Positions 69 through 30,898 of a stretch of 31,687 nt of DNA are shown here, in pieces. The position numbers and the translations under genes are program-made. Location of the stretch: NCBI GenBank assembly GCA_004335835.1, contig RWJK01001525.1, forward strand, positions 43,210-74,896, given 5' to 3'. The notes under the pieces are model-generated. The model was not told where the DNA came from. It saw only the letters and a list, made by a program, of their open reading frames with translations, and searched no databases. How positions within the stretch are numbered: the first letter of the stretch is position 1; each line of letters starts with the position of its first letter. The DNA comes from Scenedesmus sp. ARA3 (lineage: Eukaryota; Chlorophyta; Chlorophyceae; Sphaeropleales; Scenedesmaceae).

Positions 69-2141
69 CTACTCAGTGCTTAGCTCTGCAGGAACGTGCA
101 TTGCGTCTTTGATGAGGCGGTGGCGGTGCAGCCGCCATGTAGCCTGCAAGGGAGCAGCAGCATACGCAGCATGGTGTGTCAGGGAGGCAACACCTTGTAG
201 TTTGCTCAAAGGGTTGTCGCCGCAATGGCTGTTCTGCAGTAGCCGCGCTTATCAAGTGTTGCAGGAACCGCATTCCAGCGAACTGGCAGTTGCAGCAGCT
301 CAACGTACGCATAATCAGCCGGTGCACCTGCACGCAACAGCATGCCGTATGTGCACCTCAGTTTTTGAAACTGAGGCAGGGGCCCTGCCTCATCGTGGCT
401 GCTGTTCCCCAGCTGCTGTGTGCAGTTGTCTAACCCATCAACCCTCTCACCTGAATCATGCGTGCAGCAGCGTGCTTTATGTCCAGCTCAGTCACCCTGC
501 CCCGCAACTTGGCTCGCTTCTCAGCCAGCAGCTCCCGCCACCCTGCCTCAGCCTGATCTACTGCACCCTCCTCAACCAACTCAATCAGCTGCCAGGACTC
601 TGCTGCTGCTCGAGCTGCTGCATCTAGAGATAGACCGGGCTGGTACGGCCTTGGGGAGGCTTCGGGGCTCAGCCGGGCTGCTACTGCTGGCGGCGCTGCT
701 CGCAAGGTGCCCAGAAGCCTGTAGGAAGCACACCATAGCAGCGATACAGCAACAGCAACGTGATAACATGCTTGATGCATATGGAGGGCTCAGTTGCGCT
801 GCTGCTGCAGGCAGCGCTGCTCTCAGGGTAACCAGCAGCCTGCAGGCAGCAAAGCAGTGCAGTGATGCACATGCAGAGTTGACACAGCATTTGTGTGTGG
901 AAAGCTCTGGACCTAGTGTAGCTGCTGCCAGCTGTTGTGAGGCTTGTGGCTTGTTTATGTTGGCCAACTGTAAGCAGCGTTGTTGACTACTGCTGCCGCT
1001 GCTGCTGCTGCCGCTGCTGCTGCTGGTGTTCTGCTCACCTGAAGTGGCCCCAGTCATCCCTGTCTGTCTTTTCCTTCTGTTCAGCTGTGCGCTTGGCAGC
1101 AGTGCCCGCCACACGGCCTGAGGCATTGCTGGCTTGCACAGGCTTGCTGCTGCTGCTGCTGCCTTGGCTAGCTGGGGATGCTGTGGATGCTGCAGCTAAT
1201 GCGGCCGGCTGCTGCTGCTGCTGCCGCTGCTGTGGTGCTTGAGCGGCGGGTGTTTGACTGCAGCAACAGCACACACAGCAAGTGGGTCAGGCATCAGTCA
1301 TGCATGTACCACATTCCAGCTGTAAGATACGAAATTGTATGGTCTGGCTGCGTAGCTGGCTGTATGTGCAACCTCAGCTATGAGAGGTACACACCCTTGG
1401 CAGCAGCTGCAAATGCTCTTATGCATGCAGATCATGCTGCACAGCTAGCAATAGCCTGCACTAGGTGGCAAGCTAGTTGCGCGTACAGTATCAGCTGCGT
1501 TGAGCAGTCACCCACCTTGGCAGCAGCTGTCCTGCCTCATACTCTTTCTGGGCTTGAGAGAGGTTGTGGGATGCACCATGCAAAATGTCAAGCACCTGCA
1601 GGCATGTGCGATAATTGTGCCCTGTATATGAATGTAATTTTTTGATGGCATATGAAAAGCCAGCTACTGCTGCACTGCTGCTTCGGAGCGCCCTCCTAAT
1701 GTAGAGAAATCTGCGCCAGCTTGCAGCTGTACAGCACATGTGCTGCTGTCGTGCACCAGTTGCTTTTGTGATGCACAGCAATGTGTTGCGTGGGTATGCA
1801 TAGGCCTTAGCAAACGAATGTGCTGGTTGAACGAGAACATGTATGCTGCAATTATGCGCTGCCGTGTACTGCTGCTGTGTGTACTTGCATGTACACATAT
1901 GCAGGTAGGAACAGCTGTGCTACACATGGGTACCCATGGCTGTATGATGTGCGCCACTGGCTGTAGGTAAACTCACCTCACGAGTAACAATGATGCGTTT
2001 TGCTGCGTTTTTGAACTTCTTGAACGCAGACTTGTCTGACACTCGCAGGCTGCCTTCATCCTGTTCACTGTGCAGAAGTTTGCCATCCACATGGGCCGCG
2101 ACAGCCCGCTGCTCCTGTGCCTTGGTGTTATTTTCGTTCAT
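69..2141 (-). CDS. Unrecognised protein with a C-terminal IQ motif (5 exons)
   Basis: Exons in transcript order are 1977-2141, 1516-1595, 1039-1257, 451-718 and 69-143. They total 807 bases, or 268 residues plus TAG, with every GT-AG join in phase. I do not recognise the family. The first 55 residues (MNENNTKAQEQRAVAAHVDG onward) are charged and end in a lysine-rich stretch. Exon 3 is a low-complexity Q/A/S linker ending KTDRDDWGHFR. Exon 4 looks helical, with WQLIELVEEGAVDQAEAGW and RELLAEKRAKLRGRV. The join of exons 4 and 5 creates ARMIQATWRLHRHRL (IQ at about residues 243-244), which fits the calmodulin/light-chain-binding IQ pattern IQxxxR. A calmodulin-binding or cytoskeletal role is inference. 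The start is the first ATG of a phase-compatible exon; upstream exons cannot be excluded. Exon 4 has an extra acceptor-side copy in the preceding intron. Confidence 0.72.
770..862 (-). repeat. Decayed upstream copy of the exon 4 acceptor edge (IQ gene)
   Basis: On the minus strand the segment reads CTGCAG, then GCTGCTGGTTACCCTGAGAG, then a C/G-rich stretch. It parallels the true exon 4 start (CTACAG, then GCTTCTGGGCACCTTGCGAG, at 718 downward) about 123 bases away. The true exon keeps the open frame into the IQ region; this copy does not join to it. Confidence 0.6.
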
Positions 2142-2520
2142 TCTGAGCTATTATAGCAACCTTAGAGCGGTGGTGGCCATCTTGCAGTCCATGACAACAT
2201 GAAACTGCCGAGGAGCCATGTGTTCCAAGCACGCATATGCAAGACTGTAATAAAGGGCAAGTATGTATCATTATGTTCAAACATAATTGACTGAGCCTGC
2301 ACAACCCTTGACAGAGTCACTACAATGTCACTGCCGTGCATCGAGCAGGCCTACAAGCCCACAAAACATATAAAAGTAAATTTTAAACAAACATAATACT
2401 TTCTGAAGAAGCTGCTTGCTGCAGACGTACTGTGGGCGTGGTGACAAAATTACGTGAATATGCAAGTGCATCGGCATGCGGCATATCGGACTAGAGGTTG
2501 TCGAAGGACCAGTCACAGAC
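2142..2520. other. Divergent promoter region, no gene seen
   Basis: Lies between the start codon of the minus-strand IQ gene (2141) and the TATA box of the plus-strand agmatine deiminase gene. It includes an A/T-rich patch around 2365-2400. I see no supportable reading frame; it probably holds regulatory sequence for both genes. Confidence 0.5.
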
Positions 2521-2523
2521 GCC

Positions 2524-2530
2524 TATATAA
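2524..2530 (+). promoter_or_regulatory. TATA box of the agmatine deiminase gene
   Basis: TATATAA sits 342 bases before the start codon, followed by a pyrimidine-rich stretch (CCTCTTCCTTCTTCTCTTG around 2572-2590) suited to a transcription start and leader. A start about 30 bases downstream would give a spliced 5' UTR, since a good intron (2675-2860) lies between here and the ATG. Confidence 0.6.
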
Positions 2531-2674
2531 GAGATCCAGTCTACCCTAACCAGCAACAAGGCATCCTGCTCCTCTTCCTTCTTCTCTTGTACTGTTCGTC
2601 AGTCACAACCGCGCACTGAACTCTCACGCGAGCCACGTGAACCCACCTCTTCAGCTTGATACCTCGATCAAACA

Positions 2675-2860
2675 GTGAGTTCCTCCAGCTCGCTCTATCT
2701 CTGCATCGCTAGGGCAGCAGCAGCCTGCGTCCAACCAGACCTGCTGCTGTAGTACATCACGTGGGCCTTGTGCCTACACATTGCGAACTGTCTGCTCCGC
2801 AGCTTTGATCGTGTTCGATCAACCCCTTACTAACGCAGCGTCGTTTTCTGCTTCATGCAG
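2675..2860 (+). other. 5'-UTR intron with a TACTAAC branch site
   Basis: Donor GTGAGT at 2675 and acceptor TTCATGCAG ending at 2860, six bases before the ATG that opens the agmatine deiminase gene. A perfect TACTAAC lies at 2828-2834, with its branch A 27 bases from the acceptor, followed by a T-rich tract. This is the most canonical intron in the window and contrasts with the CTG-rich acceptors elsewhere. Confidence 0.65.
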
Positions 2861-2865
2861 TCGCC

Positions 2866-7886
<5,021 letters not shown>

Positions 7887-8880
7887 GCGCTGCAGTGTGT
7901 GCTGCAGCAGCCTGCTGGGTCAATGATCAGTGCAGAAACATAATTAGCAGCCGGCGCAGCATGCAGAATCGCCGGCTGATTGGGTATCAGGCATTTGTTC
8001 AATTCACTTGGAGAGTGCATATTGTACTTGTCCCTGCTGGTGACTCGCCAGCGGTGACTCACCAGTGATGTGACATCACGGTGATGTGCCACAGTCATGC
8101 AGCTTGCTGTGGAATCCTGCAACAACTTGTGTCATGGAACAGCCTGTTCCAACTGAGTTGCAAGGTTTGCTGCGGCTATGCCTGCCTGCAGTAAGTGCAG
8201 TTGCCGGTGGCAGGCCAAGCTGCTTTGGGTGTGTGAATCCCGCCTTGACAAACCAACCACCTGTGGCCTTGTACTGCAGCACTCACACTTGATGCTCGGT
8301 TACCCTGTCCCTCTGCGCCGAGAGTGCGCAGAGAGACTTTTGCAGCAAAGAGATGGTGATGCTAAACTGCTGATTCGGATATCTGTTGTGGGTGAAGCTT
8401 TGTTTGAGGGTTGTTGATGGTCAAAGTGAGGGCAGGGTTCGCGTATGCACATCAATCTGTTGTGCTGCATGTGAAGCGCAGTTGGACAGTAGGCGCACGC
8501 AGTCGTTGCACTGTGAAGCAACACATGTAACCTCTCCCTCTTCATCTACTTTGGTTGTTCCCAGCCATGCAGCTGAGTCATGAGGACTATTGAAAACCTG
8601 CTTATAAGCAAGACCACATGCGGAAGAAAGCTTGTCCCTAGTGAGGGAGCTGTGATCAGTTTGACACTTTTCAAATGCATAACAAGCCCCTTGGCGCTCC
8701 CTCTTCCGCACCAGCTGGATGTGTCAGAAGCTTCGCACCACAATGAAGCCGCTTATTGTTGTAGGGTTTGTATTATAGTTCCCTCGTGACCGAGGCGCTA
8801 TCGCATAACCATCGGCAATTCAGAGCGTAATCCACGGCAGCAGCAGCAGCAGCACCAGCACAATCAGTACCTCCAAACAC
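7887..8880. other. Intergenic region, no gene seen
   Basis: Between the deiminase stop and the WD40 gene start. It holds the deiminase 3' UTR, a TGTAA at 8526-8530 that could be its poly(A) signal, and presumably the WD40 promoter. A short (CAG)n lies at 8838-8853. The small open frames show no family resemblance. Confidence 0.5.
8526..8530 (+). terminator. Candidate TGTAA poly(A) signal
   Basis: The chlorophyte-type motif TGTAA lies 640 bases past the deiminase stop and about 350 bases before the next start codon. A long 3' UTR is common in green algae, but a five-base match alone is weak. Confidence 0.3.
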
Positions 8881-11755: not shown

Positions 11756-11802
<47 letters not shown>

Positions 11803-12136
11803 ACACGCTCGCCGCCAGAACTGCAGACGGCCGCATGGCCGCGTTGCAGCTGCCATCAGGCAAGCGGCTGAGCAGCTGGCGTGTCAACAGAATGCCGCTT
11901 CCAAGCAAGAATAGCTTCATGTTTAATGCACCAATAAAGCCAAGTGTGCTGCTGCTGCTGCTGCCGCTGCTGCTGCTGCTGCTGTTGCAGGCGACACGAT
12001 CGCCGCCAAAACAGCAGACGGCCGCATGCCGTGTTGCAGCTGCCCTCAGGCAAGCGCCTGAGCAGCTGGCGTGTCAACAAATTGCCGCTTCCTACCAAGG
12101 GTTGCTTAAAGTTTGATGCACCAACCAAGCCAAGAG

Positions 12137-12171
<35 letters not shown>

Positions 12172-12175
12172 ATGC

Positions 12176-12225
<50 letters not shown>

Positions 12226-12226
12226 A

Positions 12227-12259
<33 letters not shown>

Positions 12260-12844
12260 AGGCGACACGCTCGCCGCCAAAACAGCAGACGGCCGCATGG
12301 CCGTGCTCCAGCTGCCATCAGGCAAGCGTCTCAGCAGCTGGCGAATACCTGGCTGCTCTCACAGCACAGCTAGCTACAGCAGCCGCTGCTGCTTCGGGCA
12401 CACACGGGATGGCCAGTACATCTGTGTAGGTAAGGGTGCAGCTGGAGCTCAGGGAAGCGACACGCAATGTAGGGTGCGTGGTTGAGTGTGGGTTTGCCAG
12501 CTGCTGCCAGTTTTGAGTTTATGTTGGTTACTTGATAGGTGTGTTGGAGGCAAGGTGGAGGACGCTACTGCGTTTCACGTATGCCACCTGACACGTCACT
12601 GCTGCTGCTGCTGCTGGTGCCTCTGCTGTTGGCAGGCAACCACAATGCAGCCGCGTACGTGTTTGACACGCTGACTGGTAGCCAGCTGGCTCGGGTTGAG
12701 GCAATAAAGGTGCAGGGCTCAGTAAGGGCAGCAGGGCTCTCAGAGGACTGCAGGCACCTGGTGATGGTGGCTGGCAGTGGCTACGTGTTCAGGTTTGAGC
12801 ACACACCGGCAGCAGCGGCAGCAGCAGCGGAGGAGCAGCTTTGA
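8881..12844 (+). CDS. WD40 beta-propeller protein, EED/FIE-like (9 exons)
   Basis: Exons: 8881-8997, 9161-9250, 9536-9622, 9837-9908, 10213-10434, 10910-11183, about 11593-11697, 12262-12429, 12636-12844. The model is 447 residues; all joins are in phase, but the exon 7 acceptor is a weak guess among three. EED/FIE (Polycomb repressive complex 2) is the best match I can see: ESHCSAVQALAFN...NLFATVGKDQATIYDD parallels the first EED blade, GDALLAVAGSDPHIHIISV the second, LLLVLCRDGTLQLWQV a typical blade end, and AGLSEDCRHLVMVAGSGYVFRFEH the closing blade. An ORC-associated LRWD1-type propeller is the main alternative. If EED-like, it would help bind or spread histone H3K27 methylation in the nucleus (inference). 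An Ala-rich insert follows WDLQPV in exon 6. Exons 6, 8 and 9 have tandem edge copies. Confidence 0.75.
10746..10905 (+). repeat. TGCTG/TGCCG pentanucleotide array ending at an acceptor
   Basis: About 160 bases of imperfect GCTGT, GCTGC and GCCGT units in the intron before exon 6 of the WD40 gene. The array runs almost to the acceptor (CTGCACCAG, exon from 10910). Several stop-free shadow frames arise from it and were discarded. Confidence 0.85.
11150..11400 (+). repeat. Donor-edge copies of WD40 exon 6
   Basis: The exon 6 end GTGGACTGCATGCGATTCCT with its donor (11158-11190) recurs at about 11240-11272 (GTGGACTGTATGCGCTTCCT, donor GTGTGT) and more weakly at 11366-11400 (GCGGACTGCATGCGCTTCTT). 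All extra copies lie downstream of the full exon. Confidence 0.8.
11758..12345 (+). repeat. Three acceptor-edge copies of WD40 exon 8 with expanding CTG tracts
   Basis: A unit of CTG tract, acceptor and the exon 8 start (encoding GDTLAAKTADGRMAVLQLPSG) occurs three times, with GACACG at 11802, 11993 and 12264. Copy 1 has lost the acceptor AG (CTGGTGACAC). Copy 2 keeps CAG but has a one-base deletion after ATG that breaks the frame. Copy 3 is intact and continues into the rest of the exon. The CTG tract before copy 3 is the longest (about 12139-12260, with a few interruptions). Confidence 0.88.
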
Positions 12845-12905
12845 GTGGCAGCTGGCATTCTTCGCCACTGGCGCTCTTCGCCAGCGTTGCCACTGGTGAC
12901 AGCAG

Positions 12906-13084
12906 GTGTAGCTATGGCTTGGTTTGCAACCGTGGTTGAGGCAATCAAGGTGCAGGGTTCTGTGAGGGCAGCAGGGCTGTCAGAGGACTGCCGACACCTG
13001 GTGATGGTGGCTGGCAGCGGCTATGTATTCAGGTTCGAGCACACACCGGCGGCAGCAGCAGATAGTGCAGAGGAGCAGCTTTGA
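12906..13084 (+). other. Intact duplicate of the last WD40 exon; possible alternative 3' exon
   Basis: A tandem copy of the last exon lies 240 bases downstream of the first (GAGGCAAT at 12698 and 12938). It is preceded by GACAGCAG at 12905. Joining exon 8 to 12906 keeps phase and reads GVAMAWFATVVEAIKVQG, then the conserved SVRAAGLSEDCRHLVMVAG, a C-terminus close to the original and a stop at 13082-13084. It would lack the NHNAAAYVFDTLTG strand of the regular exon. The frame has stayed open, with mostly silent changes. Confidence 0.6.
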
Positions 13085-13204
13085 CTGGGGCTGCCAGTGG
13101 GGCTACTCGCCAGTGTTCCTACTGGCGACAGCACCATGTGGGACAGTCAGGCAAGCATTGCCATGGCTTGTTTGGTGACTTACCATGTCGAACATGATGA
13201 CACT

Positions 13205-13580
13205 GATCATGACGAGGGCAGGGCTGCGTGAGGGCAGCGGGGCTGTCAGAGGACTGCAGGCACCTGGTGATGGTGGCAGGCATTAGTGTTGATGTGTAGG
13301 TTTGTTAAGCAAACGCCAGCGACAGCAGCAGCAGATGTGAAGAGGAGCAGCTGTGACTGGCAGCGCTGGCGCAAGTGACATCACCCTTGGAAGACATTCT
13401 GGCATATGTTGCTATGGATATATGGTGGCAAGATCATAATCAATGGTGGGGAGGGCAGCTGGGATGTCGGAGGACTGCAGGCACCCGCTTTTGGTGGCTG
13501 GCAGTGGTTATGTCTTCAGGTTTTAAGCATACGCCAGCCACAGCAGCAGCAGATGTGAAGAGGAGCAGCTTCAAGTAGAA
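13205..13580 (+). pseudogene. Third and fourth decayed copies of the last WD40 exon
   Basis: CAGAGGACTGCAGGCACCTG recurs at 13247 and, altered, at about 13468, each followed by remnants of the GTGATGGTGGCTGG and AGCACACACC parts. Both have lost the reading frame. Together with 12698 and 12938 this makes four copies of decreasing quality moving downstream. Confidence 0.75.
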
Positions 13581-15877: not shown

Positions 15878-17489
15878 TTACTGCTGTACAGCAATGGCAG
15901 GTGCAGCAGTGGCACCGCACATGCCAGCAGCAGCAGCATCAGCACTAGCCACAGGCGCCGGCCTAGCAACACCTTCCTGACCAGCCGCCGCTGCAGCCTG
16001 CTGCTGCTGCTGCTGCACGTGCAGCTGCTGATCTCTCATCTTGCCATCCTTCTGAGGCACGTCGTGCTGCTGCTGCTGCGGCGCATCAAGGCAGCCCTGA
16101 CTCCCCTCTTGCTGCTGCTGCTGCTGCTGTGCTGCTGCTGCTGCTGCCGCAGCCTCACCCTCCTGCCTGCTCAATGCAGCGAGGCCTGCGGCTGCCTCCT
16201 GCATTGTGGAATCGCTGCTGCCGTTACTGCCAGCTGCACCAGGAGACCGCTGCTGCACAGCACCTTGTGCAGCAACAGCAGGCGATGCCGGCTGCTGCTG
16301 CTGCTGCTGCCCAGCAGCAGGATTTTGCCCCGCTGCTGCTGCAGCCACACCCTGCTGCTGCTGCTGCTGCAGTGCTGCTGTCCCTGCCATGCCCGTTGGG
16401 TCAAGCGTGGCAGCAGCAGCAGCGCACATGTTGCCGTCAGCAGCAGCCGTCTCGTTTGGGACCATCCCAGCTGGCAAATCATTCCTGCTGCCCTGTGTGT
16501 TGACTGTCAAGCCAGCATGCTGCTGTGCCATCTGTGCATAGCCGTTTGGGCCCATCATACCAGCCTGCTGCTGCTGCTGCATTGCATGCTGCTGCATTGC
16601 TGGCAGGCCCATGCCCTGCTGCATCATCTGCTGCTGCTGCTGCTGCTGCGCTGCTGCTGCCATTGCCATCTCCTGCTGCTGCCCATAGTACTGCTGCTGC
16701 TGCTGGTCGTACTGCTGCTGTCCGTTTGGTAGCATCATCGGGAGCATGTTAGGCACGCCGCACTGCACCATCTGCTGCTGCTGTGCATACATCTCTGCAC
16801 TCAGCATGCCTCCAGATGCTGCTGCTGACATGCCCTGGCCAGAGGGGCTGCTATCAGGACACAGCATGCCGCTGCTGCTGCCAGCATGAGTCAGCGAAGG
16901 CAGGCCTGCAAACTGCATGCCTGCAGCGGCGGCTGCAGCAGCCTGTGCATATGCTTCATCAGCAACATTCTGAAGCCGGCGGCTGTAGACAGGCGCGGAC
17001 CACAGGTGTACCGGCACCTGAGGCGCCTCTGCGCTGCCGATCCACTCCACATCCACCTCCAGCCTGCAGGAAATAACATGAAAATAACAGGAACAGTAAC
17101 AGGTAAGTAACAACCAGCCAGCATGGGTCAGGTGCTAACAGGTGCTGGTGACTGCTTTAAGAGGTGCGATGGCACATACCAGCACACACAAGTGCTCTGC
17201 AAGGATACTGCAAACGCGCAAGCAAACTGTTCAAGGATACTTTGCTGGTGACGGTGCATGCCGCAATTGCGCCAGGGAACTGTACTACTGTAACCAACAA
17301 TGCGCCAGCACTTGCTGCCACAGCTTGCCTCAACTAACAGCCTCAACTAACAGCCAAGAGCACTCCACTGCCGTGCTGCTGCTGCTGCATCCACTCACGT
17401 CTTGGGCAGGATGACTGTGCCGTGCTTCTGCATGGTCCGGTGCAGCCTGCTGACCAGGTCCCGCATGCCACTCTCAGTCACCAGCCGAA

Positions 17490-17524
<35 letters not shown>

Positions 17525-20029
17525 GCATAATTCAGTACAGCAGCCGCCCTCCAGTGCAAGTTGCATGCCTGTTGCTGCCGTCAACGCGCCATTGCACAAC
17601 ATGCAGCTGCACTCAGCCATGCAGCACGAGTGACTGGAATTGCCACTAACACAGCAGCAGCAGCAGCAGCAGCAGCAGGAGCCCACCTTGTTGCTGCCCA
17701 GCCCCCAGCGCGCCGTTGCAACATGCAGCAGCCTAGCTACAGAGGACAGATCTTCGTTTATTCAAAAGCCGCCAACACAACATGCTAGACTGTCCAACTT
17801 TACAACAGCAACAGCAGCAGCAGCAGCAGGCGGCTCACCTTGTTGCTGCCCAGCCCCCAGCGCGCCAGGTGTGGGCAGCTCAGCTACAAACAACATGTCA
17901 CACAAAATGCATCAACACAGCAGCAGCAGCAGCAGCAGCAGCAGGCGGCTCACCTTGTTGCTGCCCAGCCCCCAGCGCGCCAGGTGAGGGCACTGCTGCA
18001 GCATGTATGCCTTCATGGCCTTAACCTCCTCGATGTACTGCTCACTGGACACCGCCTTGGTGGTCAGGCAGTTCTCCACCTGCAGATGGCACAGATGTGG
18101 GCAGGCAGATATGGCGTTATGTGGTGCGGCTTTGTGGTGTCGTATGGTGGTGTACAGGCAGTGGCCAAGACAGGGTCAAGGGGAGCAGTAAGAAGTTGAA
18201 CAAGGCGAGAAGCGAGTACACGACATGGGACAGGGCGCCAATGCACACCAGTACTGCACAGCAGCAAGACCCGGATTTGGGACAGCCCTTTCTGAAGCTG
18301 AGCAGAACCACATGCTGCAGCCTTGCACCATGTGAAGCAGCTGCGGCAAACAAATCATACTGATACTAAGCAACACCCTGGCAGCAGCACACAAGCACTC
18401 TCACCATCTTGAGCAGCTCCTGTGAAATGGCATCCCACTGTGCAGCCCACAACAAGAGCCTAGCCCCTGTTCATACTAAGCAGCAGCAGCTGCCGCACCA
18501 TAACTTGTGGCAGCAGCAGCACTCACCATCTTGAGCAGCTCCTGCGGGATAGCATCCCTGTGCTGCCAGCTGCGCACGCCGTAGATCGGGATCGCGTCGT
18601 TCGGCAGGAACAGGTACTTCTCAAACACGCCGCAGCGCGCCAACTCCACGCGGTACACCATCACGTCATCACCATGCAGCACCGACTTGCCGCGCACTTT
18701 GGTCAGCCGCAGGCTGAAGTCTGATCCTGCACTGATCATGGGGATGGGGCCACATGGCAGCATCTGAGGCAGCCCTGGCATCATGTGACCCATGTGACCT
18801 GGCATGACGCCGGCCATGTGGGCGGCAGCAGCAGCAGCAGCGGCCGCCGCGCCCTGCATTGCCAGGGCCTGCTGCTGCTGCTGCTGCTGCTGGGTGAGGT
18901 AGCCGAGCGCAGCAGCGGAGTTGGCGGCAGCCTGCTGCTGCTGCAGGGGCTGCTGCTGCTGCTGGGCAGGCTGCTGCTGCTGCGGGACCTGCTGCTGCTG
19001 CTGCTGCTGTGGCGGCTCGGAGCGCTGCCGCTTGCGGCTGCCTTCAACAGCTGAAAGGTCGGTTGCAGATGAGCGGCGGCGGTAGCCGCTGCTGCCGTTG
19101 CCATTGCTGCCTGTGCCATTGGCAGCTGCTGCAGCAGCATCACTGCCGTCAGTGGCAGCTGCAGCGACTGCAGCGGCCTGCGCTGCAGCAGCTGCAGCCG
19201 GGTGTATGTCATTGACTGGCGCTTCTTGCTGCTGCTGCTGCTGAGGTGGCTGCAGCTGCTGAGCCTGCTGTGGCGGTGCCTGCTGCTGCTGCTGCTGCTG
19301 CTGGGCCTGTTGCTGCTGAGCAGCCTGCTGTTGCTGAGCAGCTTGCTGCTGCTGGGCCTGTTGTTGCTGAGCAGCCTGCTGTTGCTGAGCAGCCTGCTGC
19401 TGCTGTTGCTGCTGCTGAGCAGCCTGCTGCTGGGCTTGTTGTTGTTGCTGCTGCTGCTGCTGCTGCTGTGCGGCGGGTGGCGCATTGCCTGCAGCAGCAG
19501 CAGGGTAGCCGCCACCATTTGCGCTGCCATGCTGCTGCTGCTGCTGCTGCGCAGCCGCGCCGGAGCCGCCGCCACCATTCAGCAGCGCAGGATGCTGCTG
19601 CATCATGGCTGTTGGTGTTGGTGTGGAAGTCAGAACTGGCCCTCCCCCTGCTGCTGTGGCAGTGCTGCCACTGAGACCCATTTGAGAGGCCTCGGCAGCA
19701 GTCAGGTGGTGCGGCATGTCTGCAGAGGGCACTCCTGCGAACAGCATGTTCTCAGTGGTGCGTGCTGCATTGCTGACAATGTTGAGAAAGCCGCTTAGCA
19801 CCTGCAGCTGCTGGTGCATCTGCTTGTTTTCATTCTCCAGGTGGGCCTTGTAGCTCTCCAGGTGCTGCAGGCGCTCTAAAAGAGCATGCATAGCAGGGTC
19901 ATTGCTGGCAGCGAGCTGGCCTGTCTGCAGGGGAGGCAGCTGCACTGCCAGCTGCTGCATGGAAGGGCCCGATAAATTGAGCTCGTGTTGCTGCACGGGC
20001 ATCTGCTGAATCCCGCCCAGGCCATCCAT
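15878..20029 (-). CDS. Large glutamine-rich protein with an unrecognised globular region (4 exons)
   Basis: Exons in transcript order are 18527-20029, 17954-18079, 17399-17490 and 15878-17063: 2,907 bases, 968 residues, all in phase. I do not recognise the family. Visible parts in order: a coiled coil at about 46-88 (ALLERLQHLESYKAHLENEN); Q-, A- and S-rich sequence to about 430 with a basic SRKRQR that could be a nuclear signal; a compact non-repetitive region at about 437-615 spread over all four exons (DFSLRLTKVRGKSVLHGDD, VFEKYLFLPNDAIPIYGVR, VENCLTTKAVSSEQYIEEV, MRDLVSRLHRTMQKHGTVI, LEVDVEWIGSAEAPQVPVH); then a Q/M/A-rich tail. The composition suggests a transcriptional regulator (inference). 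The frame stays open upstream of the chosen ATG back to about 20102 without another ATG, so a 5' exon could extend the N-terminus. Exons 1 and 2 have donor-edge copies downstream. Confidence 0.8.
17494..17520 (-). repeat. CTG tract before the exon 3 acceptor of the Q-rich gene
   Basis: Reads (CAG)n on the plus strand, so CTG on the coding strand, ending in CCAG directly before exon 3 (GTTCGGCTGGTGAC). Confidence 0.85.
17650..17985 (-). repeat. Donor-edge copies of exon 2 of the Q-rich gene, each with a CTG tract
   Basis: The exon 2 end plus donor (plus-strand CACCTTGTTGCTGCCCAGCC, shared by all three) lies at 17951 for the real exon, then at 17836 and 17684. Each is followed in transcription by its own (CTG)n run of roughly 6 to 9 units. 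Only the 17951 copy continues into the full 126-base exon, so the other two are extra copies downstream. Confidence 0.88.
18400..18450 (-). repeat. Donor-edge copy of exon 1 of the Q-rich gene
   Basis: Plus-strand CTCACCATCTTGAGCAGCTC, at 18401 onward, repeats the true exon 1 end and donor found at 18522 onward, about 121 bases apart. The copy diverges after about 40 bases. Confidence 0.82.
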
Positions 20030-22401
20030 GTAGCTGCTGTACTGCTGTGGTGTGGTAGGGACCGTCAGTGTGCCGCACGCCTCGGTGCAGGCGCAGCGTT
20101 TAGCTAGCGCCTACACAGCCCGCAGATAAACTTGCAGACTCGGGCCGGCACCTGCAGAAATGAGGCATGCGGATCAGGCACCAGCCCTCGGAACCAAGGC
20201 ATCGGGCGTGTTGGAAGCCTAGTAGCGAGCAAGCCCATCCAAATATACTAAAATTACCGGACGACTCACTTGTAATTGCCTCGCGCTGTAGTATGGGCTC
20301 CTTACTATGTGAGGAAGCCAATTCCAGACTTCATTGACGCCATTATTGGCAATTCCAAAACTGTTTGCTTGCCGTATAAATGCTTTCTGAAGCAGAGGCG
20401 GATGACGAGGAGCACGCAAAACCGTAGTTGGTATTGAACGTTGGAAGGGCGATTAGGCACAATATCATGTGCACCACAGCCGGCAAACCCTCCCTGCCAG
20501 CTGTAGTTAATGCGCAGTGTACACCAGCTGGGAGCGGCCTCAGCTGTGCGAGTACTTGAGGATGTTTCCTAAAACACTAAAACTAACAACCCCCACCCAT
20601 CAGGCGAATGCTACAATCAGCGACAAGTAACTTTGGGCTATAATGTATCTCTAACAATGCTCGTTAGCGGTGCCTACGCCGCACCTGTTGGGGGAGGGGC
20701 GTGCTAACTTCAGCAAGCGTCGTTCGCTGCCTGTTGCGCTATCAGTAAAATGCAAAGACATTCTACATGCTGTAAAAGATGAAAGAGGCACTACTGATGG
20801 CCTTAGAGGCTCTAGCGGGTGTAGAAGGTTTCCCAGTTGGAAAGTCTACAATTGGTGTGTCACCCCAACCTGTCCTGGATGCCGGCTGTGCCCGTCTCAA
20901 AATGATCTCACAAGAATACATACAGTTTGCCGGCACAGCAGTAGCCACACACGCCAAATAAGCCCTCCGGGTCAGATGAGCTCGCACTCACCGGGGCACG
21001 CACTTACGCCGCACCGTGGTATACGGGTTCGCTGCGCATCAAGAGCAATGTTGAAAACAATTGAAAAACCTGGCAAAAGACATGCTCTATCACAGGCAGC
21101 GAGGGTATTCTGAAAACTTGCAGTGTTGCTGACTGTCTGCAAGCGAACAGGCACATCGTTGATGTGTTGCGATGGTTACCAATGCTAAAGTATTTTCAGT
21201 GGCTGAGAGAACATCTTTGAGCCTCTGCTGAATGCCACCCAGCCTCAATTTGTGCAGTTGCACACCATGCTGATCATGAGGATGTGCACAGGTTTCCAGT
21301 ATTCTCAAGCTTGAGTGCTCCTGTTTGGGTGCTTTACAATGCAATGGCGTACAGCACCTCCTGCCAAGACAACCAGAAATGCCCGCGTGACGCCAGCACG
21401 CCAACTGCTGATCAGCGTACTGCAGTGCTGCTAGTAGCTGGCAGCAGCACCAACCCTGCTACCCCTGTAGTGATCCATGACTCAGGATCCCACTGAAGTA
21501 TCTGGCAGATACCGGATCTGCAGTGACTGCAGGCCGTGCACTACACAGCAGCATCCATACTGGGCGTGTTACACATTACTATGCATCCAAGAAAGCAGGG
21601 AAAACTGCGCACTGTGCTCGAGCTACAGCACAGCAGCGAACCACTGCTGCTGCCTGTGCTGCTATGCTGTCACTCACACACACACATAAAATGCAAACTC
21701 TCCCTTTACATACCAATCCACAACACCGGCCTGTTGCTGCTGCAAAAAACTTGGCTGAACCCCTGAACTGGCGGAGCACTGTAATCTCACACGCCAAGCA
21801 GGCGACGGCACCGAAGGCTGCAACCTTGAAGCAACACACCAGCACCGCTTGCTGCAAAACATAACATGCACAGAATGCATCCGGTGCATGTTCTTGAGCG
21901 CTGCTGACAAGCATGCAAAGCAGTTACTGCTCTATCGCATTGCTTCTGCTTCGTGCTGGCTCTCTGCTTGCATAGCTCCACAGCCTCAAGCTGATGACAG
22001 AGCGTTTGCATACGGCATGTAAGCATCCCGATCACACTCACTGTGCATAGGCACACCTGCAACACAATGCTCAGCATACTTGCAAGTATGCCTGACATCT
22101 TCAGCCTGACAGCTGCCTTCTGCCAACACAACTGGCGCTGCCGACAACACCCCACTGCTGCACGACTGGTCGCTGCCATGCTGGCAGATCCATCCATCCC
22201 CAAAGTGTGCAGCGTGTGACACAACGTACCACATCTCTGGCACTGCGGTGCTGCCCCTGCAGCTGTTCAGGCCTTCCAAAGCACACCATCCAGCAGCAGC
22301 TGCGCAATACTGTAGCATGCTGCCGCTGCTGCTGCCGCTGCTGCCGCTGCTGCTGCCGCTGCTGCCGCCGCTGCTGCTGCCACTGCTGCACCAGCCGCTG
22401 C
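20030..22401. other. Intergenic region of about 2.4 kb, no gene supported
   Basis: Between the start of the Q-rich gene and the stop of U1-70K, both on the minus strand. It should hold the Q-rich gene's promoter and leader (a patch at 20220-20460 is visibly more A/T-rich) and the U1-70K 3' UTR. On the minus strand TGTAA occurs at 21706-21710, some 690 bases past the U1-70K stop. A (CTGCCG)n-like stretch lies at 22320-22385. Short open frames show no family resemblance. Confidence 0.45.
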
Positions 22402-22474
22402 TTAGTAGTCCCTGTCCCTGCCTCGCGGACGCTCCTCTTCATGCCGCCCGCGCTTGTAATCCCTGCAGCAGCGT

Positions 22475-22507
<33 letters not shown>

Positions 22508-25500
22508 TGCCTCTCAACTTGCACCAAAGTCACAGTACAGCTCACACAACAAGTGCGCAGATGCTGATGGCACTGCTGCTAGCTATAAATCAGCAATCAA
22601 CATCAATCAAAACACATGCCAAAGCAGCACCGGCGTCAACATAATCCATGTCGAGCCCTGGCATATCAGACATCACCCTCACCTGCCAGGTGACGCTTCA
22701 CGAGGCCGCTTGTCCCGGTCGCTCCTCTCCCTCTCCCGCCCAAAGTCCCTGTCCCTTCCCCTGTCCCTATCTCTGTCCCTGTCCCGGCTGCCCTCGTAGC
22801 CGCCGCCGCGTGGTGGGCCGCGATCTGCAAACCGATCAGGCGGTGGGCCGCGCATGTCCCGGCCGCCGCCGCCACGGTAGTCTGCAGGTGGCCCGCGCTC
22901 GTAGTCGCGAGGTGGACCGCGGGGATCCTCGCGCCTGTTATGTTACATAACATACCATAGTTTGACCAGGGTTGACCGATGACAGACGACGGTTGACCGA
23001 TGAACCAAGGGTCGCCAATGACGAGACCAGACGCCGTGTAGACAGCACCAGGAGAGACCCCCGTACCAAGGGTGGATGTAAAGCCAGCAGCAGTGCATAA
23101 CAATGCCGAGGTAGCACAGTCACCAGTGCAAAAACAAGATACAGGCGGAGCAGCTGTAAGCGCTAGCATGTGACGCAAGCAGGCCCAGAGGAGAGCAGTG
23201 CTGGGGATGTGGCTGCTGCTGCTGCTGCTGTTGCTGCACAGCCTTGTGGGACGAGGGTGAACGCCCTGCACCCCACTGCTGTTACAAGCTGCTTACGTAG
23301 CCCTGTGTCTTAAGCTGTGGTGCTGCTGCGGACAGTGTGCGAGGCGGCTTACCGTCGACACACTTACCACTGCACTTACCCAAACCCCGCAGTTTGCTGT
23401 GCAGCATGTTGGTGACTTTGAGACGACTTGTTGTTGTTGAGAAGAAAGAGCCAGCAGCGTAGAGCATGGAGAGACACTCGGGTTGCTTTGCATTACCTTT
23501 GGCTGCCGACCCCAGCTGCTTGTGCTGTACCTGACCACGTGTTCTGCTGCAACACTGTCGAATACCTTTTGACTGCTGCTGCTGCTGCTGCTCATTCCAT
23601 CACTGCACCATTGCCGGCTGTCAACTGCACTGTGTGCGCATTACCTTTTGCTGCCATCCTGATGTTTTTTTGGGCTGTGTTTCAAAGCAGCCAGCGCTGC
23701 AACATGCACGCTGATCAAGTGTATGTTTTGGCACAGCACGCAAACACATCCCCCGGAGAACTGAGCACAACTGCACTACCCACATACACAGCGCAAGGAC
23801 CCACATACAGCAAGCTCTTTCCACCTGCATACTTTGCTGCAACCAGCTGATCTCTCGCATAAAAACATGCAAGCAACTGCCCCGTCTGCTGCCACGTATC
23901 GTGCTGTCAGCTGCAACTGCCTCGCACCACAGCCATCCACAGCCAAGCACCTGGACACTGCGGCACACCCAAAACAGCTGCGCAACATGCAGTCCACAGC
24001 AGCTGCACACACCACACTGTATCTGCAACTGCTCTGCACCTGTGCTGTACCGCAGCAGAGTCAAACCTGCACCTGCCAAACCTGCACCTGCTCTGCCACA
24101 AGCGCTGCAGCAGCCACTGTACCTGATGGGTGCCTCTGCTGGCGGCAGTGTGGTGCCGCGTGCTGCTGCCTCTGCCATGAGCTTCTTACGAGGCTCCTTG
24201 GCTGCGCGTGTGTCGCCGCCCAGCCCGCCACCCAGCCGCATGGGGCGCCTGCAGAGAGCAATGGTGGCAGCAAGCACACACATATATGAGACACATATAA
24301 GAAACCACAAAAACATAGCCGCAGGATGGAGTGCTGCATGATGTTGAGTGTGCGGAGCCCCTTGGCTTCCTGTGTGTCGCCACCCATCCGCATGGGGCGC
24401 CTGCAGCATCATACAGTGTGCGAAGACGCGGCCGCAAGCGCACATTAACATGAGAATCACATGATGTCTGAGAGCTGCATGAAGGTGAGTGTGCCTGACT
24501 CCTTGGCTGCCCGGCTCACCACCCAGCCGCACGCGGCGCCTGCGATAACAGAGAGACTGCAATCAGAAATCAACGAGCCTGCACACATGCTAGTGAAATG
24601 TCCGATTGTCCACGTCCACAGCGATGCACAACCCTAAGCGCGGCAGTCATCACACAGCCACCCAACAGCCACCGAGATTCCCATGCTGCCCCACACTACG
24701 CACATCACACCTCAAAAGCGTTCAAGGGTGTGCATCGTGTTCTACGGTGCTCACCGTCCTTTTCTGGTCTCAGACCTTGTGTTCAACCTGTTGTGGCTCA
24801 TATTATCTAAGATGGTACCAGGACTCACATGTAAGTATCCGCTCTAAAAGCATAAAGCAACATGCAATAACAACAGCAGCGCACCAGTTGTCCACGGTGC
24901 GCCCCCGCTCCACGTCCACCAGGATGCGCCGCCCCTCCACCTTGCGGCCGTCTGCGTTCTTGTAGGCCTCCTTCATGTCCTTCTTGTGCTCGTACTCGAT
25001 GAACGCATAGCCGCGTGGCTTGTCTGCAGAAGTGGTTATAACGGCAGTGCATTGCATGCATTAGAACACAGTGGATTGTAGCGGTGGTTTGCTTAGGCCT
25101 CCTTCATGTCCTTGTGCTCATAATCAATAAACGCATAGCCGCGCGGCTTGTCTGCAAGCAGCATTAAAAATGGCAGTGCATTGAGTGGATGAGACAGCCG
25201 TGAATGGGTAGCATTGAATGCACCAAATAGCATGCGTGCGTTAGCTGCGCTGCTGTGCAGTGCCAGGCGCCTCACCCGTGTTCCTGTCGTGCACCAGGCG
25301 GATGCGCTTGATGGGGCCAAACTCCTCAAACTCGTGGCGCAGCTTGCGCTCCGTGACCTCGTAGCTCAGCCGCGGCACAAACAGCGTCTTGTACGCGTCG
25401 CCCTGCGCAAGCAGCGATGAAAGAGGGAGAGAAAGAGGGGTTGGTACGATTGGTTGAAAGCATCACAGCATGTTATGCTGACTTCGTAGCTCAGGAGCGG

Positions 25501-27965
25501 CACAAACAGCGTATTGTACGCGTCGCCCTGCGCACGAAAGATACATGAGATAGGGGCAAGATGCCAGTGACAGAGCAGCGATGGTGGCAGCAAGCGGCGG
25601 TAGTGCAGCAGGCGCGGGCGATCACGCGTGCGATGATGATGCAGCAGGCGCAGCATTACAGTATGCAACAACTGCTGCGAAGCAACTGCAAGCTGTAAAG
25701 CTGTACGAGGACAATTGTGACTTGCTATACGGACCAAGAACCAGAGCCAGACGTGGCAGGGTGGCGTGCCAAAGAAACGCACAGCATCACTGCAGTACGC
25801 CACATTTGCAGCGGACACCTGCAGGAGCCTCGGCTTCCGTCCCAGCAGTTTGCAGTGTGCTGTACACGCCATGCAGCTGCTGGTGAATGTACAGCCGAGG
25901 TAACGCCTCAACTACAGGAGAGCCTCGAATGCAGGTGTCTAGTGCTGCTGCTGGCAACGCGGCTCACCTCATTATGGGGTCAACTGCAGGGTTGAAGCTG
26001 GCGTACCAATGCAGTAGCTTGCTTCAAAGCCTCATGACAAACATGTTTAATGCACTAATGAATGATGTATAGCACATGCTGCCAAGGTGGCATACCTCAA
26101 TCACGGGGTCAACTGCAGGGTTCCGTTGCTCAGGAGGCCGGATATGCGCTATGCAATGATGCTCAACGTTACATACATGCAGTCCTCTGCCGCACAGGCT
26201 CACCTCAATCATGGGGTCATCTGCAGGGTTGAAGGTGGCCGCCTTCTCTTCTAGCTCCTTCTTGTTCTGCAGCGGGCAGCAGCAGCAGCAGGCAGCAGGA
26301 GCAGCAGCAGCAGCGACGTATGTGAGAAACGATACACAAGCAACCACAGCACACAGCATTGGACTGGCCCTGTCCACATCACCACAACACAGCAATGTTG
26401 TCCCTGTCTGTGTGGATTCCCAGTGCACAGCTATCGCCGCTTCGACACTCGCCCAGCTGCACACAGCACATGCTGCATGCTTGCCCTGCTACAGCTGTGA
26501 TTGCTACATACAAGTTGAGTGCACCCTGCTGCTGCCTCTGCCAGCGCAGCAGCAAGCAACACCTGCTGCTGCTCAACAACAATGAGGTGGTGTGGTACAG
26601 ATGCATCTCGCTACTGCTACTGCTGCTGCTGCTGCTGCGCACCTTCTCAACCTTCCAGTCATGCAGCCGCTTCTTCCTGCAAGCAGCAACAACAGCAGTG
26701 CGGACTCGTTAGCAATGCACACCACACCATTGTAACAATTGCAGCAGGCGCGCCGCCCACGCAAACGCGGCAATGGTGCCTAGCCCTTGTTCATATGCAG
26801 TGTGGCCAAACATAGACTACAAAGCTGACATAACACAACTATGGAGTCAACAGTTGCAGAAAGGTGTCGTTGCACACAACTGTTGCTCCTGCAAACTCTA
26901 TTTCACTTGGTAACCTGTCGAGCTGCTGTGTGTCTTGCTCACCATACCGCTGCAACAGCAATGCAAATGACGCTTGTTTAGCAGTGTACCCTGAGACACC
27001 CCCCTCCCTCCCTGCAGGCTCACTTTTCCAGCTTTGTCTCATCATCCAGCCGCACTTGCAGCTCCAGCTCCTTGTTGCGGAACAGCCGCGGCTGCGGCAG
27101 CTCGCCTGATGTTGCTGCGCTGGGCGGCTCGTACTCTGCATCACCCGGAGACGCAAACTGCGCCACCAGCGAGCCGATGCCTGCAGGAAAAGTGGCAAGA
27201 AACAATGCAGTCACACCAAAAGACATTATTGCAGAGATGTAGATGTGTGGCGGCTCGTACTCTGCATCACCCGGAGACGCAAACTGCGCCACCAGCGCGC
27301 CAATGCCTGCAGGAAAAGTGGCAATGACACAAGTGACATACCAGTTTAATTTAAGGGTTGCAGAGGTCTGAATGTGTGGCGACTCGTACTCGGCATCGCC
27401 GGGTGACGCAAAGTGCGCCACCAGCGCACCGATGCCTGAAGAGTGTGGCGGAAATGTCAGGCAGAGATATTGAAAACACACATGGCAGAGACCGCTGCTG
27501 CGCTGGGCGGCTCGTTCTTGGTGTCAGTGGGGCACGCAAGCTGCGTCACCAGCGCTCCAAAGACTGCATACACGCCAATATCAACATACATTTCGCTGCT
27601 GCAGCTCCAGGACTGCGATCACTACTGTGCTCAGCTGCACCCCAGAAGCACCGCGGTAGACAGCATGCTACCGCTACCGCTGCTGCTGCTGCCACTGTAC
27701 GCACAACTGCAGCTGCAGCACCATCACTACAACAGCGCAGCACGGCACCGTGCCACCTAAGCACGCGCGCACCTGTGTACGGAAGCTTGGGCTTCTTTTT
27801 TGGCTTGGCATTTTCAGCAATGAAGCGCAGTGGAGGCCCGGGTGCAAACAGCCGCACCAGCTTTTCCGGCAAGCCTGTGGGGTGGCCTGTCTTCACACTC
27901 TCCTTCATCATCTTGGTCATGACGGAGCGGGAGGGCCGCCGCCAATCCCCCGGTGGCCCGTTCAT
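22402..27965 (-). CDS. SNRNP70: U1 small nuclear ribonucleoprotein 70 kDa (9 exons)
   Basis: Core protein of U1 snRNP; binds stem-loop I of U1 snRNA and helps define 5' splice sites. Exons in transcript order: 27773-27965, 27024-27180, 26643-26676, 26204-26266, 25276-25402, 24885-25023, 24123-24248, 22683-22934, 22402-22462; 1,152 bases, 383 residues, every join in phase. The N-terminal family region is clear ([51 protein letters not shown]). The RRM spans about 150-235 with RNP2 LFVPRL (156-161) and RNP1 RGYAFIEY (195-202), followed by the hallmark [20 protein letters not shown]. The tail is RD/RG-rich ([13 protein letters not shown]) and ends RPRGRDRDY. Start: ATG at 27965; an in-frame ATG at 27992 would add MTTTAAAAA. 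Exons 2, 4, 5, 6 and 7 have edge copies in introns. Confidence 0.95.
24350..24545 (-). repeat. Two acceptor-edge copies of U1-70K exon 7
   Basis: The exon 7 start ([19 protein letters not shown]; plus-strand CGCATGGGGCGC at 24238 onward) recurs at about 24352-24400, and more decayed at about 24494-24541. Spacing is roughly 151 and 139 bases, with a CTGCAG-type acceptor kept in the nearer copy. Both lie upstream of the real exon in transcription. Confidence 0.85.
25095..25160 (-). repeat. Acceptor-edge copy of U1-70K exon 6 (RNP1 region)
   Basis: Encodes [19 protein letters not shown] behind an apparent CTGCAG-type acceptor. It matches the real exon 6 start at 25023 downward apart from a one-codon deletion and E-to-D, then ends. 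Upstream of the real exon in transcription. Confidence 0.88.
25483..25536 (-). repeat. Acceptor-edge copy of U1-70K exon 5 (RNP2 region)
   Basis: Plus-strand GGCACAAACAGCGTATTGTA through CGCGTCGCCCTGCGCA repeats the exon 5 start (encoding [10 protein letters not shown], here [10 protein letters not shown]) about 127 bases upstream in transcription. Confidence 0.87.
25970..26135 (-). repeat. Two donor-edge copies of U1-70K exon 4
   Basis: The exon 4 end (encoding [10 protein letters not shown]) and donor recur at about 26096-26130 and 25978-26010, 108 and 118 bases downstream in transcription. The codons now read as in NPAVDPVIE. The nearer copy has TATGAGGTATG where the donor should be, while the farther copy keeps GTGAGC. 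Confidence 0.85.
27244..27570 (-). repeat. Three acceptor-edge copies of U1-70K exon 2
   Basis: The exon 2 start ([19 protein letters not shown]) recurs three times upstream in transcription. The plus-strand CGGCTCG-type anchors lie at 27125 (real), 27251, 27380 and 27508: spacing 126, 129 and 128 bases. The first two copies read [20 protein letters not shown] and [20 protein letters not shown]; the last is degraded. The nearest copy keeps a CTGCAG acceptor; the next has TTCAG. Confidence 0.9.
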
Positions 27966-30762: not shown

Positions 30763-30898
30763 AAGCTGCTGCCACCATTCACTTTTTCTTCTTCAAGCGC
30801 TGCTGCATGTGCAGCTGGTACTTCTTTTCTGCAATGCGGAAGGCTGTCTCAGACAGAGAGGACGCCTCCTCTGCGTGCTCGTATGGCCCTTCCGCCAT
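29001..30898 (-). CDS. ALKBH1: ALKBH1-type 2-oxoglutarate/Fe(II) dioxygenase with polyQ insert (2 exons)
   Basis: AlkB-family oxidative demethylase; the ALKBH1 subfamily is known for acting on methylated bases in DNA and tRNA. Exons 30783-30898 and 29001-30534 total 1,650 bases, 549 residues. The N-terminus (SETAFRIAEKKYQ, then LVAQPTDLSDVIDV) parallels the ALKBH1 AFRKLFRFY...DLEGVIDF region. SHPGLAVFPAALP and LLRKLRWASLGPPYNW match further family blocks. The catalytic core has NYYHPGDTLNGHKDD (Fe ligands His419 and Asp421), SLGCAAVFLIGG, LRSGDVAVLGGPARACYHGV (distal ligand His475) and the 2OG-binding RxNxTxR-like RVNISVR (540-546) at the C-terminus. A polyQ-rich insert of over 100 residues separates the N-terminal block from LLRKLRW, and an Ala run precedes FRPNVALVNYY. 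The short intron carries a (CAG)n run on the coding strand. Start: first ATG of a phase-compatible exon (MAEGPYEHAEEASS). Confidence 0.9.
29458..29491 (-). repeat. Coding (GCA)n run giving poly-alanine
   Basis: Reads GCA on the coding strand of the ALKBH1-type gene and encodes about 12 alanines just before the Fe-binding core. The frame is kept. Confidence 0.9.
30730..30762 (-). repeat. (CAG)n run in the ALKBH1-type intron
   Basis: About 11 units in the only intron, close to the donor (GTGAAT at 30782). On the coding strand it is CAG, not CTG, and it lies near the donor, unlike the CTG tracts found before acceptors. Confidence 0.88.

What the first reader, a model, noticed from the sequence alone, without database searches (positions are those of the whole stretch)
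770..27570. Exon-edge tandem duplication in five unrelated genes, with a strict polarity rule
At least 14 exon edges across five genes have one to four extra tandem copies of a short unit spanning the exon-intron boundary. In every case I could read, donor-spanning copies lie downstream of the intact exon and acceptor-spanning copies lie upstream. The extra copies therefore always stay inside the intron and leave one clean exon. Unit lengths are about 95-270 bases and copies run from near-identical to decayed. This is what repeated short tandem duplication across splice sites, tolerated only when intronic, would leave. It also supplies ready-made acceptor/donor pairs, so it could be a running source of new introns, mini-exons or poison exons in this lineage. 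Intron gain by duplication of AGGT-containing exon sequence is a published idea; a genome in which it recurs at so many junctions would be a strong natural case.
Basis: partly seen in the sequence, partly recalled or inferred. Interest (0 to 1): 0.88.

Follow-up and report, generated by a model that had tools for sequence, protein, structure and literature searches.

The report
Exon-edge duplications fill algal introns
In this green alga's DNA, short stretches of roughly a hundred letters have been copied in place so often that many introns carry extra broken pieces of the neighbouring exon; the pieces are likely harmless leftovers, and they would make introns longer without changing the protein.

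Summary
In the window I count 15 splice edges plus one last-exon end with one to four extra tandem copies. The window is not special: evenly sampled contigs of the same assembly hold 93 such arrays in 187 kb (5.0 per 10 kb) against 17 in the window (5.4 per 10 kb). Of 701 predicted exon edges, 96 have a nearby copy; recognisable extra-copy DNA is about 15% of the complete introns. Proteins match Tetradesmus obliquus.

The 'strict polarity rule' is geometry: a tandem duplication across an edge always leaves the partial copy on the intron side. Copies look neutral: frameshifts in about 20 of 91, no amino-acid constraint, sequences private to one locus. Proteins from contigs of spliced size for three genes (14 such edges) skip every copy. 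The fall of identity at the splice site is largely what one frozen plus one free copy would give, but a strong indel deficit in the exon half is unexplained.

Best reading: a frequent, likely non-targeted mutational process (units mostly 100-140 bp) whose exon-edge products survive because they are spliced out. Intron gain and mini-exons find no support here.

The parts
3326..3789 (+). agmatine deiminase exon 2 donor, 104-bp unit, 4 extra copies (40-nt exon piece + ~64-nt intron piece each; last intron piece diverged)
   Evidence: exon 2 = 3218-3364; clean junction in P0001
4042..4299 (+). agmatine deiminase exon 3 donor, 2 extra copies (spacings ~113 and ~95 bp)
   Evidence: exon 3 = 3988-4086; P0001
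5020..5559 (+). agmatine deiminase exon 5 donor, 2-3 extra copies (unit 134-138 bp), last one strongly decayed
   Evidence: exon 5 = 4956-5073; P0001
5724..5894 (+). agmatine deiminase exon 6 donor, 1 extra copy (spacing 112)
   Evidence: exon 6 = 5693-5766; P0001
6339..6467 (+). agmatine deiminase exon 8 acceptor, 1 extra partial copy upstream (spacing 98)
   Evidence: exon 8 starts 6433; P0001
11153..11396 (+). WD40-like gene, donor with 2 decayed extra copies (11240, 11360)
   Evidence: splice site read by eye
11805..12343 (+). WD40-like gene, acceptor of exon near 12261 with 2 extra copies upstream; CTG tracts between
   Evidence: read by eye
12694..13575 (+). WD40-like gene, end of last exon with stop codon; three copies DOWNSTREAM of the gene (not intronic)
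17685..17992 (-). Gln-rich gene, donor of exon 17954-18079, 2 extra copies downstream in the gene
18379..18567 (-). Gln-rich gene, donor of the exon whose low end is 18527, 1 extra copy
24215..24543 (-). U1-70K exon 24123-24248 acceptor, extra copies upstream in the gene
   Evidence: clean junction in P0123
24963..25194 (-). U1-70K exon 24885-25023 acceptor, 1 extra copy (spacing 131), 3-bp gap
   Evidence: P0123
25354..25534 (-). U1-70K exon 25276-25402 acceptor, 1 extra copy (spacing 125)
   Evidence: P0123
25949..26239 (-). U1-70K exon 26204-26266 donor, 2 extra copies downstream in the gene
   Evidence: P0123
27113..27568 (-). U1-70K exon 27024-27180 acceptor, 3 extra copies upstream in the gene (spacing 126-129 bp)
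   Evidence: P0123
665..869 (-). weakly supported minus-strand gene, acceptor-side copy (spacing 121, 77% identity)
   Evidence: exon called only, not

Best explanation
Short tandem duplications, mostly with units of 100-140 bp, recur throughout this genome, and those that span an exon edge leave partial exon copies in the intron, where they are likely tolerated because splicing removes them. Shown here: the arrays, their density in the sample, their private (non-dispersed) sequences, the geometric origin of the side rule, clean splicing in proteins from contigs of spliced size for three genes, and lack of protein constraint on the copies. Inferred: the duplications are made without regard to splice sites by replication slippage or break repair (for example fill-in at staggered breaks); the exon half stays recognisable longer because its parent copy is held by selection on the protein while the intron half drifts in both copies; the process lengthens introns.
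For: Same density in evenly sampled contigs as in the window. Arrays occur without exon label too: 38 intron-only and 22 intergenic-only of 110 units, with similar unit length (medians 116.5 and 138 against 126 bp) and similarly partial alignment (aligned/unit 0.55 and 0.62 against 0.53, P = 0.35). Exon-only 0 against 3.3 expected. In 35 pairs whose alignment covers both halves: exon half 8.0%, intron half 16.0% substitutions, the upper end of the 1.5-2-fold expected for one free copy against two. Copies: N/S codon changes 191/112 = 1.71 against 1.37 expected for a neutral copy beside a parent free only at synonymous sites; frameshifting gaps in 20 of 91. Intron halves significantly homologous (P<0.01) in 27 of 59 testable pairs, and at P<0.05 in 10 of 13 when the exon half is >=95% identical, which supports tandem origin. 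Clean junctions at 14 edges in P0001, P0123, P0241. Units private to one locus.
Against: One-edge units are twice the random-placement expectation (43 against 20.6); I read this as longer visibility of edge copies, but a preference for edges is not excluded. Indels are 11 times rarer in the exon half (0.48% against 5.4% per site), where about 2 times is expected. In 32 pairs picked by homology of the intron half the contrast is larger: 7.5% against 18.1% substitutions, 0.58% against 8.5% indels; full-length pairs labelled non-coding show 3.4% indels at 14.6% substitutions (20 pairs). Codon-position differences of 6.0/5.1/15.5% are steeper than a strictly neutral copy predicts. In 32 of 59 testable pairs the intron half is not homologous at P<0.01. 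Exon labels come from my own self-trained gene finder, which missed genes and called intronic copies as exons; some 'non-coding' units visibly contain exon-like sequence (for example in L004 and L006), so that control is impure.
Confidence: 0.82

Rival explanations
1. The copies are functional splicing elements (decoy splice sites or alternative mini-exons) kept by selection.
For: Identity steps down at the splice site, and in realigned pairs the copy keeps the GT at 0.92/0.92 and the AG at 0.91/0.97; far fewer indels than flanking intron; the four exon-2 copies of agmatine deiminase each have an AG and a GT, and the gene finder called these and several other copies exons; the exon-5 (57 nt) and exon-6 (36 nt) copies would keep the frame.
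Against: No amino-acid constraint, frameshifting gaps in 20 of 91 copies; no clear enrichment of a second splice site at the inner end; with fixed-offset projection the inherited splice dinucleotide is present in only 37 of 53 donor and 23 of 32 acceptor copies; the exon-2 copies (40 nt) and exon-3 copy (38 nt) would shift the frame; proteins from spliced-size contigs skip all copies at 14 edges.
Confidence: 0.06
2. Copying is delimited by the splice site itself, for example an RNA- or R-loop-guided event that copies exon sequence up to the junction.
For: Outer ends of the aligned blocks peak 0-18 bp past the splice site; only 8 of 59 donor-side and 4 of 39 acceptor-side blocks stop at negative values, and 10 rows show an exon-internal piece copied outside; the identity step; the indel contrast.
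Against: Intron halves are homologous in 27 of 59 testable pairs and in most of the youngest; some arrays duplicate exon and intron halves equally well (for example in L008, L052 and exon 2 of the window gene); units labelled non-coding show the same partial alignment.
Confidence: 0.06
3. A mobile intron-like element (introner or other transposon) with target-site duplications.
For: Repeated acquisition of similar-sized insertions in introns.
Against: Four array regions find only their own place in the 87-Mb assembly plus one 39-bp match (that search skips simple repeats and very common words); 107 of 110 units have no match in other sampled loci, the other three only 19-40 bp.
Confidence: 0.02
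4. Assembly artefact (falsely repeated reads).
For: The assembly is fragmented (1,567 contigs); one unit in L052 is identical over 52 + 63 bp.
Against: Copies differ from their parents by 0 to about 30%, with indels of their own; that is not what duplicated reads give.
Confidence: 0.03

Closest known systems
Intron gain by tandem genomic duplication (AGGT model; reviewed in PMC3443670, potato case PMC4974935, Drosophila cases PMC2891723)
   Same: Short tandem duplication in a coding gene that spliceosomal splicing hides from the mRNA.
   Different: There the duplicated segment is exonic and a new intron appears; here the unit spans an existing splice site and only lengthens an existing intron. 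PMC3443670 and PMC2891723: passages seen; PMC4974935: listings with start of abstract only.
Small tandem duplications from fill-in at staggered breaks (CST-Pol alpha, PMC8355091)
   Same: Small head-to-tail duplications in wild-type cells at breaks with overhangs.
   Different: Experimental breaks in mammalian cells; no link to this alga was tested. Passages seen.
Tandem repeats near intron-exon junctions in Chlamydomonas and Volvox (PMC3887541)
   Same: Green-algal introns rich in tandem repeats towards intron ends.
   Different: That survey used units of 1-50 bp only; the passages seen do not relate the repeats to copies of the adjacent exon.
Tandem exon duplication / mutually exclusive exons
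   Same: Extra copies of exon sequence in tandem.
   Different: Here copies are mostly partial, have one inherited splice site and no frame constraint; units with two or more edges were 5 of 110. Family recalled, no paper seen.

Membership tests
Intron gain by tandem genomic duplication | duplicated unit lies in exon sequence and carries a proto-splice site | tested here: not met
   0 of 110 units exon-only; 43 span one existing edge. Proto-splice motifs were not scanned
Intron gain by tandem genomic duplication | a new intron position appears | not testable with these tools
   no genomic DNA of related algae was reachable
Tandem exon duplication / alternative exons | copy is a complete exon with both splice sites | tested here: not met
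   inner-end AG 23 of 53 against 21 of 53 in the parent, inner-end GT 10 of 32 against 5 of 32 within 3 bp but 15 against 15 within 6 bp; two-or-more-edge units 5 of 110; some single copies do have both sites
Tandem exon duplication / alternative exons | copies kept in frame and under protein constraint | tested here: not met
   frameshifting gaps in 20 of 91, N/S 1.71 in 67 ungapped copies
Introner / transposable element | related copies dispersed over the genome | tested here: not met
Short tandem duplications (minisatellite-like arrays) of general mutational origin | head-to-tail local copies, also outside exon edges | tested here: met
Break-repair tandem duplications | junction signature (little or defined microhomology) | tested here: inconclusive
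   only one young full-length two-copy pair passed the filter (L013, 7 bp shared with one mismatch)

The most novel reading that the evidence does not exclude
This alga has a mutational process that copies exon edges up to the splice junction itself, likely coupled to transcription or R-loops, so that it continuously seeds introns with ready splice sites and is a main driver of long introns in this lineage.
Probability: 0.07. Interest if true: 0.85.

Novelty: new variant of a known kind. Interest (0 to 1): 0.5.

Why it matters
If the density holds genome-wide, this is a natural laboratory for three questions: how fast short tandem duplications arise, how splicing discards competing splice sites, and how introns lengthen. 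In the sample 69 of 172 complete predicted introns carry extra-copy DNA (median 456 bp, mean 536; 343 and 368 bp after removing it) against median 270, mean 386 bp in the other 103; the extra DNA is about 15% of the sequence of these introns. Part of the difference is length bias, since long introns are hit more often. A published table gives T. obliquus a mean intron of 462 bp against 230-302 bp in four other green algae (PMC5966456, passage). There is a practical side: gene finders can mistake the copies for exons, as mine did (30 such calls relabelled). If neutral, intronic copies are fossils of exon sequence that could help date substitutions.

Tried and rejected
Neutral tandem duplication was first doubted because many intron halves looked unalignable (59 of 96 at z<=4 against block shuffles); a null drawn from other arrays showed homology at P<0.01 in 27 of 59 testable pairs, and alignments covering both halves gave about a two-fold substitution ratio, so I returned to it. 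Splice-delimited copying was considered from the identity step and outer-end peak, then down-weighted. Protein constraint on copies was considered from codon-position differences and rejected; there, the equal-length global alignment may add some 1-bp gaps, so 20 of 91 is approximate. Wrong-side copies: 31 loose rows and 9 of 254 stricter rows in five loci (L006, L018, L020, L021, L030). From the listing I judge most to be arrays of three or more copies or copies that the gene finder called exons, but I did not settle each. One search also lists 53 rows in which both copies touch one predicted exon (array members and repeat proteins, not sorted further). L015 was dropped as satellite-like before these counts; L001 and L002 were not used. 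Some of the 30 WD40 loci overlap, so a few of the 96 of 701 edges may be counted twice. A first gene finder over-called tiny exons and was replaced. Scripts failed and were corrected.

Full report
What was checked. The window lies at the end of contig 1143 (43,210-74,896) of an 87.27-Mb, 1,567-contig assembly. Protein searches place it at or next to Tetradesmus obliquus: the 279-aa U1-70K query is identical to part of the annotated T. obliquus protein P0121 and differs at one residue from P0122.

Observation. TRF, the repeat finder and masked self-BLAST confirm the arrays. The agmatine deiminase gene was resolved to 11 exons encoding an uninterrupted 439-aa protein that matches solved agmatine deiminases over residues 60-434. 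Five of its edges have extra copies. The two 'genes' at 22-28 kb are one, U1-70K, with five such edges. With the WD40-like gene (2), the Gln-rich gene (2) and a weakly supported minus-strand gene (1) I count 15 splice edges, plus the end of the WD40-like gene's last exon, whose copies lie downstream of the stop codon.

Is it more than chance, and is it local? Simulated order-2 sequence gave 0 hits for all 51 scanned sequences. Twenty stretches (nineteen of 10 kb, one of 6.8 kb, each from base 5,001 of every 80th contig) were taken (L003-L022); L015 was set aside as satellite-like. The other 19 (186.8 kb) hold 93 units, the window 17; three of the 19 hold none (L005, L007, L016). So the window is ordinary for its genome.

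Gene models. No annotation was available, so I trained a splice-aware hidden Markov gene finder on the held loci. Against my hand-read agmatine deiminase gene (part of which seeded its training) it gets 7 of 11 exons exactly, 3 with wrong edges and misses exon 3; it called intronic copies as exons and missed genes in some loci. Every genome-wide number below depends on it.

Edges. In 50 sequences (window, 19 sampled loci, 30 WD40-centred loci, some overlapping), 96 of 701 predicted edges have a copy within 700 bp: 57 donors, 39 acceptors. Spacing clusters at about 104-138 bp, with a second cluster at 229-256 bp.

Polarity. A tandem duplication of a segment X|Y that spans a donor turns E-X|Y-I into E-X|Y-X'|Y-I: the exon body touches only the first X and the remaining intron only the last Y. 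The partial copy is therefore always downstream for donors and upstream for acceptors; a toy simulation only restates this definition (6,750 of 6,750). The side rule carries no information on selection. What does is which site is spliced and how often units fall inside exons.

Which site is spliced. P0001 (439 aa, longest contig 1,670 nt) differs from the window gene at residue 27 only and so runs through all ten junctions; P0123 (longest contig 2,002 nt) is identical over the 264 residues that cover the six upstream U1-70K junctions; P0241 (longest contig 1,576 nt) matches the alcohol dehydrogenase of locus L003 with one mismatch in two pieces of 118 and 183 residues. The genomic coding spans are about 5.0, 3.8 and at least 4.1 kb, so these contigs must come from spliced RNA; that inference is mine, since the database gives only the source label 'lgn' and the contig length. 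Fourteen edges with copies (5 + 5 + 4) are spliced cleanly. Isoforms that use copies cannot be excluded.

Placement. Of 110 units: one edge 43 (expected 20.6), two or more edges 5 (4.0), exon-only 0 (3.3), intron-only 38 (43.6), gene end 2 (2.0), intergenic-only 22 (36.0). Unit length modulo 3 is even in one-edge units (15/13/15 for remainders 0/1/2). Exon-only depletion is as expected from selection, but the numbers are small. The two-fold edge excess I attribute to slower visible decay; a true preference is not excluded.

Decay. In 53 donor and 32 acceptor pairs chosen for exon-part identity of at least 0.8, identity is 0.79-1.00 on the exon side, 0.75-1.00 in the splice consensus and 0.50-0.83 beyond it in gap-optimised alignments. 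In the 35 pairs whose alignment covers both halves, exon halves differ at 8.0% and intron halves at 16.0% of sites; 1.5-2-fold is expected if the exon's parent copy is held and everything else drifts. In 32 pairs picked by intron-half homology the ratio is 2.4 (7.5% against 18.1%). Units labelled non-coding show equally partial alignment (median aligned/unit 0.55 and 0.62 against 0.53; P = 0.35), with the caveat that some contain missed exons. Indels are 11- to 15-fold rarer in the exon half, more than the two-fold expected. This is not explained; sequence composition or ascertainment are only possibilities.

Constraint. In 67 ungapped copies, 191 codons differ non-synonymously and 112 synonymously from the parent; the ratio 1.71 exceeds the 1.37 expected for a neutral copy beside a parent free only at synonymous sites. 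There are 4 stops, against at most about 10 expected. Gaps that shift the frame were found in 20 of 91 copies, a figure that the alignment method may inflate. The copies do not behave as protein-coding elements.

Not mobile. Four array regions match only their own place in the assembly, apart from one 39-bp match; 107 of 110 units match no other sampled locus.

Consequences. Array spans cover 22% of intron, 20% of exon and 11% of other bases in the sample; recognisable extra-copy DNA is 15% of the sequence of 172 complete introns, 69 of which carry some. Published mean intron length in T. obliquus is 462 bp against 230-302 bp in four other green algae (PMC5966456, passage). That the arrays explain the difference is a hypothesis.

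Literature. Nine full-text searches showed no paper describing exon-edge tandem copies as a genome-wide pattern in this alga. I saw at most 15 rows of each, some out of hundreds or thousands, and passages of PMC3443670, PMC2891723, PMC8355091, PMC3887541 and PMC5966456; subscription papers are mostly not in that library. Intron gain by tandem duplication is well published; what is added here is its frequent, apparently neutral by-product at existing splice sites.

Verdict. Real, genome-wide in the sample and not found described in the searches made, but mechanistically ordinary on present evidence: a high rate of short tandem duplication seen through the filter of splicing. The polarity rule is a tautology, and the intron-gain and mini-exon ideas find no support in the data available. 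After re-checking, confidence was lowered by 0.01 for the impure non-coding control and the contrast.

Noticed in passing
window 24122-22935 (minus strand), intron after U1-70K exon 24123-24248: The protein P0123 from a spliced-size contig and proteins from two other algal transcript sets (P0124, P0125) all read on past this exon (shared residues IRYS), so retention of this intron in U1-70K looks conserved.
   Followed up: partly
window 27024-27180 and copies at 27249-27568: The window's exon and T. obliquus protein P0121 read GIGS where protein P0122 reads GIGA; the intronic copies at 27249 and 27378 also encode Ala (read by eye). This could be an old polymorphism or conversion from a copy into the exon; the related protein P0124 has Ser.
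   Followed up: partly
window 3942-3987, 4896-4955, 6399-6432, 12137-12260: Long CTG runs end in or near ctgcag at intron 3' ends, so a trinucleotide repeat seems to supply the acceptor region.
   Followed up: no
window 30783-30898 (minus strand): Both annotated T. obliquus U1-70K proteins begin with residues (MAEGPYEHAEE...) encoded here, beside an AlkB-like reading frame (label recalled, not searched), about 3 kb upstream of the U1-70K start; possibly an annotation fusion.
   Followed up: no
L015: A locus dominated by many near and far repeats (108 and 109 pairs), satellite-like; left out of the counts.
   Followed up: no
window 5079-5552: TTGACCA-type 11-bp repeats fill the intron after agmatine deiminase exon 5; a 39-bp piece matches contig 1380 at 92%.
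   Followed up: no
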